A stretch of DNA of 64,000 nt from Parasphingopyxis algicola (GTDB lineage Bacteria; Pseudomonadota; Alphaproteobacteria; Sphingomonadales; Sphingomonadaceae): the NCBI RefSeq assembly GCF_013378075.1, contig NZ_CP051131.1, positions 1,984,001 to 2,048,000 on the forward strand, read 5' to 3'. The notes beneath the pieces are model-generated. The model made no database searches. It was given only the letters and a program-made list of their open reading frames with translations, and was not told the DNA's origin. Below are positions 7,912 through 54,694 of the stretch, in pieces (position 1 is the stretch's first letter; every line of letters starts with the position of its first letter). A program made the translations under genes and the position numbers.

Positions 7912-8088
7912 TTTGTCGGAAACTTCCGTTCGGAAGTTCGCGGCACCGGGAGTCGTTTGTCAGACCTTCGCTTCGCTCGGGCGCGACACCGGCCCGCCCC
8001 TCCCGGCCTCCCACTAGGGTATACTCACTGGGAAGTCGGGAGGGGGGCGGGCCGGTGCCGCGCTCGACCGATAGGTTGATTCTGACAA
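7912..8088. repeat. palindromic intergenic element, copy A
   Basis: A 177-bp non-coding element with a half unit (TTTGTCGGA, a hairpin AACTTCC/GGAAGTT, then GCGGCACCGG) followed by a full unit from 7956 to 8088. The full unit is bounded by TTTGTCAGA and TCTGACAA and contains a long GC-rich palindrome (7987-8057) around the 15-nt core CTAGGGTATACTCAC. Its right-hand small hairpin is TCGACC-GATA-GGTTGA. Copies B (9363-9561) and C (54519-54694) share this plan. It fills the gap between the [2Fe-2S] gene and the 3' end of the aldolase gene. Confidence 0.85.
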
Positions 8089-8107
8089 TAAGGAACCGAA
8101 GGCAGCG

Positions 8108-8872
8108 CTATTCCCGCCAGCTCGTATCGATGCGGTCGACCTGCCGAACCCAGGCATCGAATTCCGCCCGTCCCGGTTCGGCGGACGCCTGGGTCTGGGA
8201 GATGTCGCGCTGATGGACGTCGACGACTTCTTGCGGGACGGCGATCGGCTCGCCGGCCTTCATCGTCGCCACCTGGATTTCGCACGCGCGTTGAAGCGCC
8301 CAATACTGGATCACCGCGATCGGCAATGTCGGCCCGATCACCACCGGCCCATGGTTTTTGAGCATCAGTATCCGGTTGCTGCCGAGATTTTCGAGCAGGC
8401 GTTCGCCCTCTTCCTCCCGCACCGTTACGCCCTCGAAATCGTGATAGGACAGACGGCCGATGAAATTGCAGGCGTAGAAGTTCACCGGCTGCAATCCGCC
8501 TTCCATCGAACAGACCGCCATGGTGTCGGTCGTATGCGTATGGATGATGCAATGCGCGTCGTGCAGGTGGCGGTGGAACAGGCTGTGCTGGACGAAACCG
8601 GCCTTATTGACGGGATATTCACTGCCGTCGAGCTTGTTGCCGTCGATGTCGATCTTGACGAGATTGGACGCCTTCACCTCGGAGAAATGGAGGCCGTAGG
8701 GGTTGATGAGGAACGCTCCGTCTTCGTTCGGCACCTTCACCGTGATGTGGTTGAAGATCGCCTCGTGCCAGCCCATCATCGCGAAAATGCGATAGGTGGC
8801 GGCCAGCTCCTGCCGGGCCTTCCATTCCTCGTCGGTCATCTGGTCGTTGGACGGGGCGACTGTCGTGGCCAT
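8108..8872 (-). CDS. class II aldolase/adducin family protein
   Basis: A 254-residue protein with the zinc-site pattern of class II aldolases: HTHTTDT supplies an HxH pair and LKNHGPVV a further histidine, with the FLINPYGLHFSE segment upstream. Family members cleave or epimerise sugar phosphates (L-fuculose-1-phosphate or ribulose-5-phosphate) or decarboxylate related acids. Sphingomonads carry several of unknown substrate. The start at 8872 (MATTVAPS) is preceded by GGAG at a 6-base spacing; the frame extends further upstream without a better site. It stands alone, followed by palindromic element A. Confidence 0.85.
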   Translation of the reverse strand: MATTVAPSNDQMTDEEWKARQELAATYRIFAMMGWHEAIFNHITVKVPNEDGAFLINPYGLHFSEVKASNLVKIDIDGNKLDGSEYPVNKAGFVQHSLFHRHLHDAHCIIHTHTTDTMAVCSMEGGLQPVNFYACNFIGRLSYHDFEGVTVREEEGERLLENLGSNRILMLKNHGPVVIGPTLPIAVIQYWALQRACEIQVATMKAGEPIAVPQEVVDVHQRDISQTQASAEPGRAEFDAWVRQVDRIDTSWRE

Positions 8873-9108
8873 CGCGATCTCCATCAATTGAGCGGAATTC
8901 AGCGCAGTTTCGCGCAATGCGCCGGCATTGTCGAGAGCCGCAACACACGCTTTTTGCTTGAAATCCGGCGCGCCGGTTGCTAGCTGGCCATCCGGAGCGC
9001 TGCGGAACGCAAGTTCGCGGTGCAATCGTATTTATGCTATGAGATTGATATCCGCGGGCAATATTCCGCCGGCGGGACGAGATGGTTCGATTGGAGACAG
9101 ACGGGTTT

Positions 9109-9312
9109 ATGCAAGTTTCAGTTCGCGATAATAATGTCGATCAGGCGCTCCGCGCGCTCAAGAAAAAGCTGCAGCGCGAGGGTGTGTATCGCGAAATGAA
9201 GCTGCGCCGGCATTACGAGAAACCGTCCGAAAAGCGTGCGCGCGAACGCGCCGCCGCCATCCGCCGCGCCCGCAAGCTCGAGCGCAAGCGCATGGAACGC
9301 GACGGTATCTAA
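9109..9312 (+). CDS. rpsU: 30S ribosomal protein S21
   Basis: A 67-residue, strongly basic protein beginning [20 protein letters not shown], the standard S21 sequence; it binds the 30S platform near the anti-Shine-Dalgarno region. The C-terminus is a lysine/arginine-rich helix ([18 protein letters not shown]). The start at 9109 is set by family alignment, since an earlier in-frame ATG would add nine non-conserved residues. An intrinsic terminator follows 28 bases after the stop, with palindromic element B immediately behind it. The gene is monocistronic. Confidence 0.97.
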
Positions 9313-9340
9313 ACCGCTTCCTGCCCATCTCGACTAAAAG

Positions 9341-52253: not shown

Positions 52254-52291
52254 CGCCATCGCCGGCCGGAAGAGCCGCGCGACGAACCGGC

Positions 52292-52320
52292 TTGCACTGG
52301 CCGCGCCTCTCATTCTATAG
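52292..52320 (+). promoter_or_regulatory. candidate sigma-70 promoter of hppA
   Basis: TTGCAC-N17-CTATAG ends 81 bases before the hppA start, in the gap after thiL. Confidence 0.55.
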
Positions 52321-52400
52321 CGCGCCTAACTCCGCACGCGTCCGGTCTCGGGCGCGTCTTTCTATGCGGGAAACCAACTGCCAAGGGGGCTATAACCCAA

Positions 52401-54518
52401 ATGATTCTAGAACCGATGACGATCGTTGTCGCGGCCATTGTGTGCGGCCTTCTCGCCGTGCTCTACGGCATCGTGACCAGCCGCCAAGTGCTTGCTGCAA
52501 GCGCCGGCAACGAAAAGATGCAGGAAATCGCCGGCGCCATCCAGGAAGGCGCGAGCGCCTATCTGGGCCGCCAGTATCGCACCATCGCCATTGTCGGCGT
52601 GCTGGTCGCGATACTCGTCGGTATCTTCCTCGGATATCTCTCGGCGATCGGCTTCGTGCTCGGCGCCGTGCTGTCGGGCGTTGCCGGCTATATCGGGATG
52701 AACATCTCGGTCCGCGCCAATGTGCGGACGGCACAGGCCGCCAGCGAAAGCCTGCAAAGCGGTCTCACGGTCGCATTCCGCGCGGGTGCCGTCACCGGCC
52801 TGCTCGTCGCCGGTCTCGCGCTGCTCGCCATCTCGGTCTTCTTCTATGTGCTGACCGGGCCGCTCGGCGAAGCCGCCGATAGCCGCACGGTCGTCGATGC
52901 GCTCGTCGCGCTCGCGTTCGGCGCATCGCTGATCTCGATCTTCGCGCGTCTCGGCGGCGGCATCTTCACCAAGGGTGCGGACGTCGGCGCCGATCTCGTC
53001 GGCAAGGTCGAGGCCGGTATTCCGGAGGACGATCCCCGCAACCCCGCGACCATCGCGGACAATGTCGGCGACAATGTCGGCGATTGCGCGGGCATGGCGG
53101 CCGACCTGTTCGAGACGTACGTAGTGACCGTCGGTGCCACCATGGTGCTGATCGCGCTGCTGCTCGGCACCAGCGCCAATCTGCTGCCGCTGATGGCGCT
53201 CCCGCTCGCGATCGGTGGCGTGTGCATCATCACGTCGATCATCGGCACCTATTTCGTGCGTCTGGGCTCCAACAACTCGATCATGGGCGCGCTCTACAAG
53301 GGCTTTATCGTGACCGCCGTGACCTCGGCGATCGCGCTCTATTTCGCGACGCAGATGACGGTCGGCGACATGAGTGCGACGCTCGGCACGGTCGGCGAAA
53401 CCAGCTTTACCGGCATGAGCCTCTTCTATTGCATGCTGCTCGGCCTCGCGATCACCGGCATCATCATCTGGATCACCGAATATTACACGGGCACCACCTA
53501 CCGCCCCGTGAAATCGATCGCCAAGGCGTCCGAAACCGGCCATGGCACGAACGTGATCCAGGGTCTTGCGGTCAGCCTCGAGGCGACTGCGCTGCCGACC
53601 ATCGTGATCTGCATCGGCATCATCGTCGCTTATCAGCTGGCAGGCGTGATCGGCATCGCCTTCGGCGCCACCTCGATGCTGGCGCTGGCCGGCATGGTCG
53701 TCGCGCTCGACGCCTATGGGCCGGTCACCGACAACGCCGGCGGCATCGCCGAAATGGCCGAGCTCGACGAGGAAGTGCGCAACCGCACGGACGCGCTCGA
53801 CGCGGTCGGCAACACGACCAAGGCCGTGACCAAGGGCTATGCCATCGGTTCGGCCGGTCTCGCCGCGCTCGTGCTGTTCGGTGCGTACACGACCGATCTC
53901 GGTATCTTCTTCCCCGACGTCATCGTCGATTTCTCGCTCTCCAATCCGTACGTGATCGTCGGGCTGCTGCTGGGTGCGCTTCTGCCGTACCTGTTCGGCG
54001 CGATGGGCATGATGGCGGTAGGCCGGGCCGGCGGCGCGGTGGTCGAGGAAGTGCGCGCGCAGTTCCGCGACAATCCGGGCATCATGGAAGGCACGAGCCG
54101 TCCCGACTATGCCCGCACTGTGGACCTCGTCACCAAGGCGGCGATCAAGGAAATGATCGTACCCAGCCTGCTTCCGGTCTTCGCCCCGATCGTGGTCTAT
54201 TTCGTGATCACGGCCGTCGGCGGCCAGGAGAATGGCTTCGCCGCATTGGGCGCGCTGCTCCTCGGCGTAATCGTCTCCGGCCTGTTCGTCGCGCTTTCGA
54301 TGACGAGCGGCGGCGGCGCATGGGATAACGCCAAGAAGCATATCGAAGACGGCCATCATGGCGGCAAGGGTTCCGAAGCCCATAAGGCGGCCGTGACCGG
54401 CGATACCGTCGGCGATCCCTACAAGGATACAGCCGGCCCGGCCGTGAACCCGATGATCAAGATCACGAACATCGTGGCCCTGCTGCTGCTCGCGGCCCTC
54501 GCCGGCGGCGTGCATTAA
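52401..54518 (+). CDS. hppA: membrane-bound proton-pumping pyrophosphatase
   Basis: A 705-residue integral membrane protein with about 16 spans. Active-site motifs are [20 protein letters not shown] and [18 protein letters not shown] near residues 195-230, and the C-terminal EGTSRPDYA and [10 protein letters not shown]. It couples pyrophosphate hydrolysis to proton pumping across the inner membrane. [12 protein letters not shown] has lysine at the position that distinguishes potassium-independent enzymes from the GNTTAA potassium-dependent type. Palindromic element C starts immediately after its TAA stop. A -35/-10-like TTGCAC-N17-CTATAG lies upstream. Confidence 0.96.
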
Positions 54519-54694
54519 TTTGTCAGAATTTCGCTAGCTCGAAATCGCCGCACCGGATTCTATGTGTCAGACTCGAACTAACGTTCGAGCGCCGCACCGG
54601 CCCTCTCCCCCTCCCATTCAGTATACCCTAGTGGGAGGCCGGGAGGGGGAGAGGGCCGGTGCGGCGCCTGAGGCGAAGCCGAAGGTCTGACAAA
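54519..54694. repeat. palindromic intergenic element, copy C (inverted core)
   Basis: A 176-bp element abutting the hppA stop codon. The half unit is TTTGTCAGA, a hairpin ATTTCG/CGAAAT, then GCCGCACCGG. The full unit has a perfect hairpin CTCGAAC-TAAC-GTTCGAG, then the long GC palindrome around the core TTCAGTATACCCTAG (the reverse complement of the core in copies A and B). The right hairpin is CCTGAGGC-GAA-GCCGAAGG, and TCTGACAAA closes it. The left long arm has lost 8 bases relative to the right. Confidence 0.88.

What the first reader, a model, noticed from the sequence alone, without database searches (positions are those of the whole stretch)
7912..54694. Three-copy dispersed palindromic element with conserved 15-nt core and TTTGTCAGA/TCTGACAA ends
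Copies at 7912-8088, 9363-9561 and 54519-54694 share a half unit plus a full unit, both opening TTTGTCAGA (variants allowed). The full unit has long GC-rich inverted arms around the core CTARGGTAYACTSAM and closes with TCTGACAA. In copy B the arms are a perfect 34-bp inverted repeat. Copy C carries the core in the opposite orientation. No gene is inside. This is a structured, multi-copy intergenic family that I cannot match to a named repeat class. It may be a MITE, a REP-like element or a substrate for a trans-acting nuclease or transposase.
Basis: seen in the sequence. Interest (0 to 1): 0.75.

Follow-up and report, generated by a model that had tools for sequence, protein, structure and literature searches.

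The report
Cloverleaf palindromic repeat of Alphaproteobacteria
A short piece of non-coding DNA that can fold into a four-armed cross is scattered behind genes in dozens of copies in this bacterium, and its central sequence recurs in other branches of its class; how it spreads is unknown.

Summary
The three copies belong to a genome-wide family: at least 75 places in a 3.67-Mb genome in or next to genus Parasphingopyxis. The complete unit is 139 nt: ends TTTGTCAGA/TCTGACAAA, two small side hairpins, and a 35-bp palindrome around a 15-nt core. DNA folding gives a four-way cross in 57 of 64 units.

New result: the two side hairpins, of five interchangeable types, are never of one type in this genome (0 of 61 units, 13.6 expected) and almost never in four congeners (1 of 55, 9.8 expected). 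Arms match within a copy without G-U preference, so pairing is kept at DNA level. The central palindrome, not the ends, recurs across Alphaproteobacteria: 29 of 385 genomes. Congeners have sites without it. No copy of 71 lies inside a gene; copies favour gene 3' ends. No RAYT was found in this genome and no target duplication, so the mobilising factor is unknown.

Verdict: a new variant of REP-like palindromic repeats; it resembles published REP heterodimers but fails GTAG-REP, CGTC-REP and Rfam tests.

The parts
7912..7949 (+).
   Evidence: sequence; layer parse
7956..8089 (+). Copy A, complete unit: end 7956-7964, side hairpin (CCT type) 7965-7981, left arm 7982-8013, core 8014-8028, right arm 8029-8062, side hairpin (decayed CTC type) 8063-8080, end 8081-8089; imperfect arms
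   Evidence: model hit at contig 1991956-1992089
9342..9365 (+). Terminator-like hairpin and T-run behind rpsU; the T-run runs into the left end of copy B
   Evidence: read from the sequence and kept in congeners; the automatic scan did not list it
9363..9415 (+). Copy B, outer left layer: end 9363-9371, hairpin (CCT type) 9372-9388, long arm piece 9389-9415
9423..9561 (+). Copy B, complete unit (best example): end TTGGTCAGA 9423-9431, side hairpin CTC type 9432-9449, left arm 9450-9484, core 9485-9499, right arm 9500-9534, side hairpin ATT type 9535-9552, end TCTGACAAA 9553-9561; arms a perfect 35-bp inverted repeat
   Evidence: model hit at contig 1993423-1993561
9576..9602 (+). Copy B, decayed outer right layer: hairpin CTC type 9576-9593 and end TCCTACAAA 9594-9602
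   Evidence: sequence; layer parse
54519..54556 (+). Copy C, outer left layer starting next to the stop codon of the H+-pyrophosphatase gene: end 54519-54527, hairpin ATT type 54528-54545, CGCCGCACCGG 54546-54556
54563..54694 (+). Copy C, complete unit, core reversed: end 54563-54571, side hairpin CTC type 54572-54589, left arm 54590-54616 (8 nt shorter), core 54617-54631 on the minus strand, right arm 54632-54666, side hairpin CCT type 54667-54685, end 54686-54694
   Evidence: model hit at contig 2038563-2038694
54701..54724 (+). Intrinsic-terminator-like hairpin of the H+-pyrophosphatase gene, kept in congeners; copy C lies between stop codon and this hairpin

Best explanation
A family of small, non-autonomous, REP/MITE-like DNA elements. 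Each complete copy can fold, as single strand or cruciform, into a cross: a 9-bp base stem, a side hairpin, a 35-bp main hairpin with a conserved apical core (about YAGnnTAYnCTR), and a second side hairpin, with no unpaired base at the junction. Shown: anatomy, copy number, sites with and without it in congeners, within-copy matching of the arms, and the near-absence of units with two like side hairpins. Inferred: new copies are inserted by an enzyme supplied in trans that reads the folded DNA; unlike side hairpins are needed because two like ones would let the unit refold into one straight 62-bp hairpin. Copies survive where they do least harm, behind stop codons. Older copies are overgrown by newer ones or lose the main palindrome, leaving half units and scars. 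Any use to the host would be secondary.
For: At least 75 places in one genome. Cross as DNA minimum-energy fold in 57 of 64 units; 97.3% of 928 cells paired and 98 two-sided changes, slid controls 38-48%. Left and right side hairpins never of one type in 61 own units (13.6 expected), 1 of 55 in congeners (9.8 expected, P 1.5e-4); the similar pair ATT-AAC also absent (0, 3.4 expected, P 0.013). The rule does not hold between outer layers (2 of 15, 3.0 expected). Arms agree within a copy, with 4 G-T and 10 A-C among 29 mispairs of 1645. Sites without the element next to filled ones. Heart conserved across the class while ends change. 0 of 71 inside genes, convergent pairs enriched.
Against: No mobilising enzyme was found; Y1 transposases are absent from the genome. 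No target-site duplication and no insertion caught in the act; intergenic flanks are too diverged to fix exact ends. The unlike rule has exceptions in congeners: L411 (a chimeric hairpin, 6 of 7 alike), L354 (5 of 7) and the G202 unit at site B (two ATT-type hairpins, 5 of 7); in another genus L394 has like stem cores. The second congener sample alone is not significant (1 of 20, 2.7 expected, P 0.22). All units were fetched by models or BLAST that favour good pairing, which inflates pairing percentages, though not the left-right test. Published REPs show that heterodimers can also be explained by instability of homodimers (PMC3733652).
Confidence: 0.5

Rival explanations
1. The unlike-hairpin rule is a by-product of instability, not of mobility: units with like hairpins arise but are soon cut or deleted because the palindrome would then be about 62 bp per arm (SbcCD-like nuclease, replication slippage). 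Di Nocera and co-workers proposed this for REP heterodimers.
For: The proposal is in print (PMC3733652 section 14). Heart-less scars exist in the own genome (L255, L258) and in G203 at site A and at L099, so palindromes are deleted. Outer layers, which do not lengthen the main palindrome, do not obey the rule.
Against: The 35-bp heart alone is already longer than the 8-16 bp minimum for SbcCD cleavage quoted in that paper and persists in at least 75 places. Partly similar pairs (ATT-AAC) are missing too.
Confidence: 0.3
2. A host-serving 3'-end element: a bidirectional transcription stop, RNA protector or supercoil sink kept by selection behind genes.
For: 32 of 71 copies lie between convergent genes and 5 between divergent ones, against 13 and 13 of 66 neighbouring pairs (P 0.002 and 0.04). 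Several lie within a few nucleotides of stop codons.
Against: Patchy between species and genera; the same genes lack it in congeners and there keep their terminator; no T-run follows its stems; no G-U preference. Avoidance of harm gives the same placement.
Confidence: 0.15
3. No mobility now: old palindromes kept and made perfect in place by template switching and gene conversion; the patchiness is loss.
For: Within-copy matching; core orientation 31 to 27 with 3 unclear; one orthologous copy with the same side-hairpin types and an inverted core (L121 against L313); no enzyme.
Against: Sites without it in several congeners beside filled ones, and copy numbers from a few to at least 75 within one genus, call for gain or massive loss.
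Confidence: 0.15

Closest known systems
CGTC-tagged REPs in head-to-head dimers (Di Nocera et al. 2013, PMC3733652; abstract, passages, sections 6, 7, 14 and part 1 of 17 read; figures not held)
   Same: Mainly Alphaproteobacteria; small hairpins with 4-nt loops in inverted pairs; TGTC near the outer end (the paper allows CGTC changed to TGTC); pairs often of unlike partners; conserved, sometimes structured spacers; behind genes and between convergent genes; no known transposase.
   Different: Here stems are 7 bp and begin with C-G or A-T, the tag is separated from the stem by AGA, the tail is CGC and not CCA, and between the hairpins lies a 35-bp palindrome conserved across the class. The paper reports no CGTC repeats in Acetobacteraceae, where this heart occurs. 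It says GT pairing supports an RNA role; here G-T is not favoured.
GTAG REPs, BIMEs and REPINs moved by RAYT (PMC3733652; PMC2817692 and PMC3116915 seen as search listings only)
   Same: Palindromic intergenic repeats in composite mosaics, moved in trans.
   Different: No GTAG foot in the units read; unit 139 nt rather than 20-40; no Y1 transposase in this genome.
MITEs (PMC10969869, PMC2229807 and PMC5896051 seen as search listings only; definition recalled)
   Same: Short, non-coding, terminal inverted repeats.
   Different: No target-site duplication; no parent transposon with these ends was seen (only partly looked for).
Intergenic mosaic elements of rhizobia such as RIME (named in search listings; details recalled)
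   Same: Composite palindromic intergenic mosaics in Alphaproteobacteria.
   Different: Not compared by sequence here.

Membership tests
CGTC REP | CGTC (or TGTC/CCTC) motif directly at one end of the stem | tested here: not met
   TGTC, sometimes CGTC, is present but AGA lies between it and the stem; definition
CGTC REP | Stem of 8-9 bp with A-T pairs at first and second position | tested here: not met
   Commonest stems are 7 bp; the first pair is A-T in 8 and C-G in 7 of 16 units in helix 2 and likewise in helix 4
CGTC REP | Loop of 4-5 nt | tested here: met
   Most side hairpins are 18 nt, 7 bp plus a 4-nt loop
CGTC REP | Unpaired tail, mostly CCA | tested here: not met
   The stem is followed by CGC, which starts the paired arm
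CGTC REP | Mostly head-to-head dimers, often of unlike partners | tested here: met
   Inverted pairs; 0 of 61 of like type; definition
GTAG REP / RAYT system | RAYT (Y1 tyrosine transposase) in the genome | tested here: not met
   PF01797: none in G000, G074, G142, G195; present in 27 of 199 family genomes. Weak, non-significant association over the family: element in 15 of 27 with and 61 of 172 without Y1, P 0.056
GTAG REP / RAYT system | GTAG foot beside a 20-40 bp palindrome | tested here: not met
   The 139-nt units carry TTTGTCAGA ends
MITE | Terminal inverted repeats | tested here: met
   9-bp ends, helix 1, 91.7% of cells paired
MITE | Target-site duplication | tested here: not met
   63 copies, mean longest flank match 4.35 against 4.41 for shuffled flanks; four stop-start insertions keep the overlap on both sides, 3-11 nt
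MITE | Parent transposon with the same ends | not tested
   Whole genome not available as a file; only half-unit motifs were listed, first 100 of 125
Any Rfam family | Score at or above the gathering threshold | tested here: not met
   0 in the window; for copy B only matches below threshold, mostly animal microRNAs

The most novel reading that the evidence does not exclude
A class-wide mobile DNA of Alphaproteobacteria that moves as a folded, four-armed single strand: a still unknown structure-reading enzyme, not a RAYT, needs two different side hairpins (a left and a right mark) around a G-rich palindromic heart, and this need is written in the genomes as a near-ban on like pairs.
Probability: 0.3. 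Interest if true: 0.8.

Novelty: new variant of a known kind. Interest (0 to 1): 0.6.

Why it matters
Why REP pairs avoid identical partners was said to have 'no obvious explanation' in the survey of tagged REPs (PMC3733652, section 14). Here the avoidance is nearly complete (0 of 61 own units, 1 of 55 in four congeners), with interchangeable modules and natural controls (outer layers, scars, an inverted core). The competing answers, geometry needed for movement or instability of long palindromes, become testable on a harmless 139-bp sequence. The family is also shared by at least 18 family groups of one bacterial class, and in the searches made here I found no description of it.

Tried and rejected
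Rfam: no match at gathering score; sub-threshold matches of copy B are what a long GC-rich hairpin gives. RAYT drive: not in this genome; over the family the association is weak (15 of 27 against 61 of 172, P 0.056). Target-site duplication: no overall signal. RNA-level selection: not supported. G-quadruplex reading of the arm: the G runs of the G-rich strand vary at 0.23% against 8.26% at other positions in 47 copies, but the other Gs except one position are equally fixed, so it is not singled out. Intrastrand-triplex repeats (PMC4666352; abstract and passages): none of six arm words in the text and no sphingomonad named. RepRanger survey (PMC12306157; passages) and the Sphingopyxis granuli genome paper (PMC4741004; passages): nothing on this repeat. 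Phages: 0 of 50,697 records; plasmids: 3 of 72,556, all sphingomonads. Phylum draw: 12 of 398 genomes, all of the class; how many drawn genomes lie outside the class was not listed. GC skew from sampled loci was too noisy to place origin or terminus. CGTC-REP starts in the window: 15 matches, 13.4 expected. Clustering of neighbours below 2 kb (8, 3.0 expected if uniform) is explained by regional density (6.3, P 0.28).

Rows dropped. The 149 hits I merged by hand to 75 places. 73 were loaded for parsing (75 loci, two places twice); L027 and L094 were left out of the 71 because their heart equals that of another copy; their side hairpins are also unlike. The two weakest places (51742, 2404578) were only read. 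Of 71, 61 could be typed; of the other ten, L003 and L004 were mis-parsed and are unlike, L001 is decayed, L127-L133 are degenerate or mis-parsed. In one search, 5 of 40 units were dropped (three at contig ends, two with weak ends); none of 20. Whether congener units are orthologous to own ones, and so not independent, was not checked. One search used 47 copies with equal 35-nt arms and skipped 15. Gene context rests on my own simple codon-usage gene caller with the window as baseline; 8 of 71 units overlap the end of a predicted gene by 1-31 nt. Of the 20 alignments, 11 show no element, 3 a complete copy, 1 a scar, 5 other sequence.
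Full report
WHAT IS THERE. The three copies are real and at the stated places. The window is positions 1984001-2048000 of a single 3,669,801-bp contig. A covariance model of 16 complete units gives 149 hits there at E up to 0.01, which I merged to 75 places, most hit on both strands; 150 of 3872 candidates were scored. The organism is in or next to genus Parasphingopyxis: three contigs of the congener G202 have the lengths (824,928, 57,562 and 20,235 bases) of contigs of the public MAG Parasphingopyxis sp. 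IP29b_bin.104, whose copies have the same ends and side hairpins.

ANATOMY. A complete unit is 139 nt: TTTGTCAGA, an 18-nt hairpin, a 35-nt arm, a 15-nt core, the complementary arm, a second 18-nt hairpin, TCTGACAAA. Written as a structure it has 58 pairs in four helices and no unpaired base at the junction; 97.3% of 928 cells pair and 98 cells show two-sided changes, while slid controls pair at 38-48%. With DNA parameters the minimum-energy fold is this cross in 57 of 64 units. The core lies in either direction, 31 to 27 with 3 unclear. Of 64 units, 19 have no outer layer, 27 have a single one on one side, 11 have one on each side, 7 have more.

THE UNLIKE-HAIRPIN RULE. In this genome the side hairpins come in five types, named here by first letters: CTC, ATT, ACG, AAC, CCT. 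They combine widely, but left and right are never of one type: 0 of 61, 13.6 expected, no permutation of 100,000 below 2. The similar pair ATT-AAC is also absent (0, conditional expectation 3.4, P 0.013). New data from congeners, scored without types: among 35 parsable of 40 units of G202 and G203 none has 6 of 7 stem bases alike (7.8 expected, P 5e-5); among 20 of G074 and G204 one does (2.7 expected, P 0.22); together 1 of 55 (9.8 expected, P 1.5e-4). Exceptions and near-exceptions: L411, whose left hairpin is a chimera; L354, 5 of 7 alike; and the G202 unit at site B, read outside these samples, with two ATT-type hairpins 5 of 7 alike. So the rule is very strong but not absolute. Outer layers do not obey it (2 of 15, 3.0 expected), nor do opposite-side neighbours of different layers (11 of 55, 12.6 expected); same-side neighbours show a weak deficit (5 of 57, 12.0 expected, P 0.01). 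In other genera of the family (20 units read by eye) hairpins have other sequences and the two ends mostly differ, or only one end has a hairpin; L394 has like stem cores on both sides. No statistics were done there.

DNA, NOT RNA. Six polymorphic arm positions agree between the two arms of a copy in 81-100% of 47 copies where independence predicts 50-84%. Of 1645 arm pairs 1616 are Watson-Crick; the rest are 4 G-T, 10 A-C and 15 other. On the transcribed strand of tandem contexts the arms show 1 G-T and 7 A-C, the side hairpins 3 G-T and 4 A-C. Selection on an RNA should leave G-U pairs. The numbers are small and the copies were fetched by tools that reward pairing, but they point to pairing kept in DNA, by need for a hairpin or cruciform or by template-switch correction.

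WHERE COPIES SIT. None of 71 copies is spanned by a predicted gene (8 overlap a gene end by 1-31 nt); 32 lie between convergent, 34 between tandem and 5 between divergent genes, against 13, 40 and 13 of 66 neighbouring pairs in the window (P 0.002 for convergent, 0.04 for divergent). Copy B starts in the T-run of a terminator-like hairpin behind rpsU, and copy C lies between the stop codon of an H+-pyrophosphatase gene and its terminator-like hairpin. Copies are unevenly spread: 24 fall in 200 kb from 2.54 Mb on, where 2000 uniform draws gave at most 15.

HISTORY AT SINGLE SITES. Site A: G204, G074 and G142 have no element, G195, G199 and G201 have other sequence, G202 has a complete copy with other side hairpins, G203 a scar without the heart. 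Site B: G142 and G195 have no element, G204 keeps a decayed remnant, G074 perhaps an end, G202 a complete copy 18 nt from the T-run. Site C: 7 congeners have no element, G203 a complete copy with other side hairpins. At L121 the congener G203 has the same side-hairpin types but the core reversed; at L104 the outer left layer of our copy corresponds to the left end of a simple copy in G202, so a half unit can be what is left of an older copy. Heart-less scars with unlike hairpins also exist in the own genome (L255, L258). Four insertions at stop-start overlaps keep the overlap on both sides (3-11 nt), but over 63 copies there is no duplication signal.

HOW FAR IT REACHES. With the Parasphingopyxis model 76 of 199 family genomes match. 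A model of the heart alone finds it in 29 of 385 class genomes, 20 of 277 genera, 18 family groups, with 12 candidates scored per genome; a phylum draw gives 12 of 398, all in the class. Plasmids: 3 of 72,556 records; phages: 0 of 50,697. The inner arm, about CCCKCKCCCCCWCCCRRCCWCCCA, and the core, about YAGnnTAYnCTR, are kept while ends and side hairpins change. The hearts were picked by an exact arm motif, so their arm conservation is partly by construction; those were not.

MECHANISM. The most likely reading is a non-autonomous mobile palindrome moved in trans. Shown: multiplicity, presence and absence between species, interchangeable modules, the unlike rule, DNA-level pairing, decay products. 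Inferred: that an enzyme reads the folded form. Not found: that enzyme. Y1 transposases, the proposed movers of GTAG REPs, are missing in this genome and in the three congeners of that draw; over the family the element is somewhat commoner where a Y1 gene exists (15 of 27 against 61 of 172, P 0.056), so a role elsewhere is not excluded. The main rival for the unlike rule is loss of units whose palindrome would be too long; it is published for REP heterodimers and fits the scars. Against it, the 35-bp heart already exceeds the cited minimum for cleavage and yet persists.

NOVELTY. Closest are CGTC REPs in head-to-head heterodimers (PMC3733652). They share clade, inverted pairing, loop length, 3' location and the lack of a known transposase. 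They differ in stem start and length, tail and spacing of the tag, and, in the text I read, in lacking this conserved palindromic heart. I therefore file this as a new variant of a known kind. The paper searches do not cover most subscription journals or preprints, and the sequence figures of the CGTC paper could not be read.

Noticed in passing
own genome, contig 2543322-2743322: 24 of 75 copies lie in 200 kb; the congener G074 also has many matches in one stretch, about 1.85-1.99 Mb. Cause unknown.
   Followed up: partly
L028, just left of the element: A different palindrome (ccggacttgcctgc..gcaggcaagtccggcatgacg) abuts this copy; read backwards it begins CGTCATGCC like a CGTC REP, so two repeat families may sit side by side.
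   Followed up: no
L142 (Sphingomonas koreensis), 3948 onward: The right arm of the heart seems interrupted by another palindrome (taaccccgcaaagtattactttgcggggacc), a repeat inserted into a repeat.
   Followed up: no
L203, L116: Two more copies begin directly at a terminator-like T-run, like copy B; T-runs may be preferred targets.
   Followed up: no
L347, L350, L352, L357, L370: Draft contigs of congeners end in or next to the element, so the family breaks assemblies.
   Followed up: no
G083, G031 and the Kiloniellales MAG units: There the ends begin CTAGAG or similar and one end often lacks a side hairpin; CTAGAG may mark a lineage-specific end type.
   Followed up: no
window 9109-9312, 52401-54518, 7290-7868, 8108-8884: Genes beside the copies: ribosomal protein S21, H+-pyrophosphatase, a 2Fe-2S protein and a class II aldolase.
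   Followed up: yes
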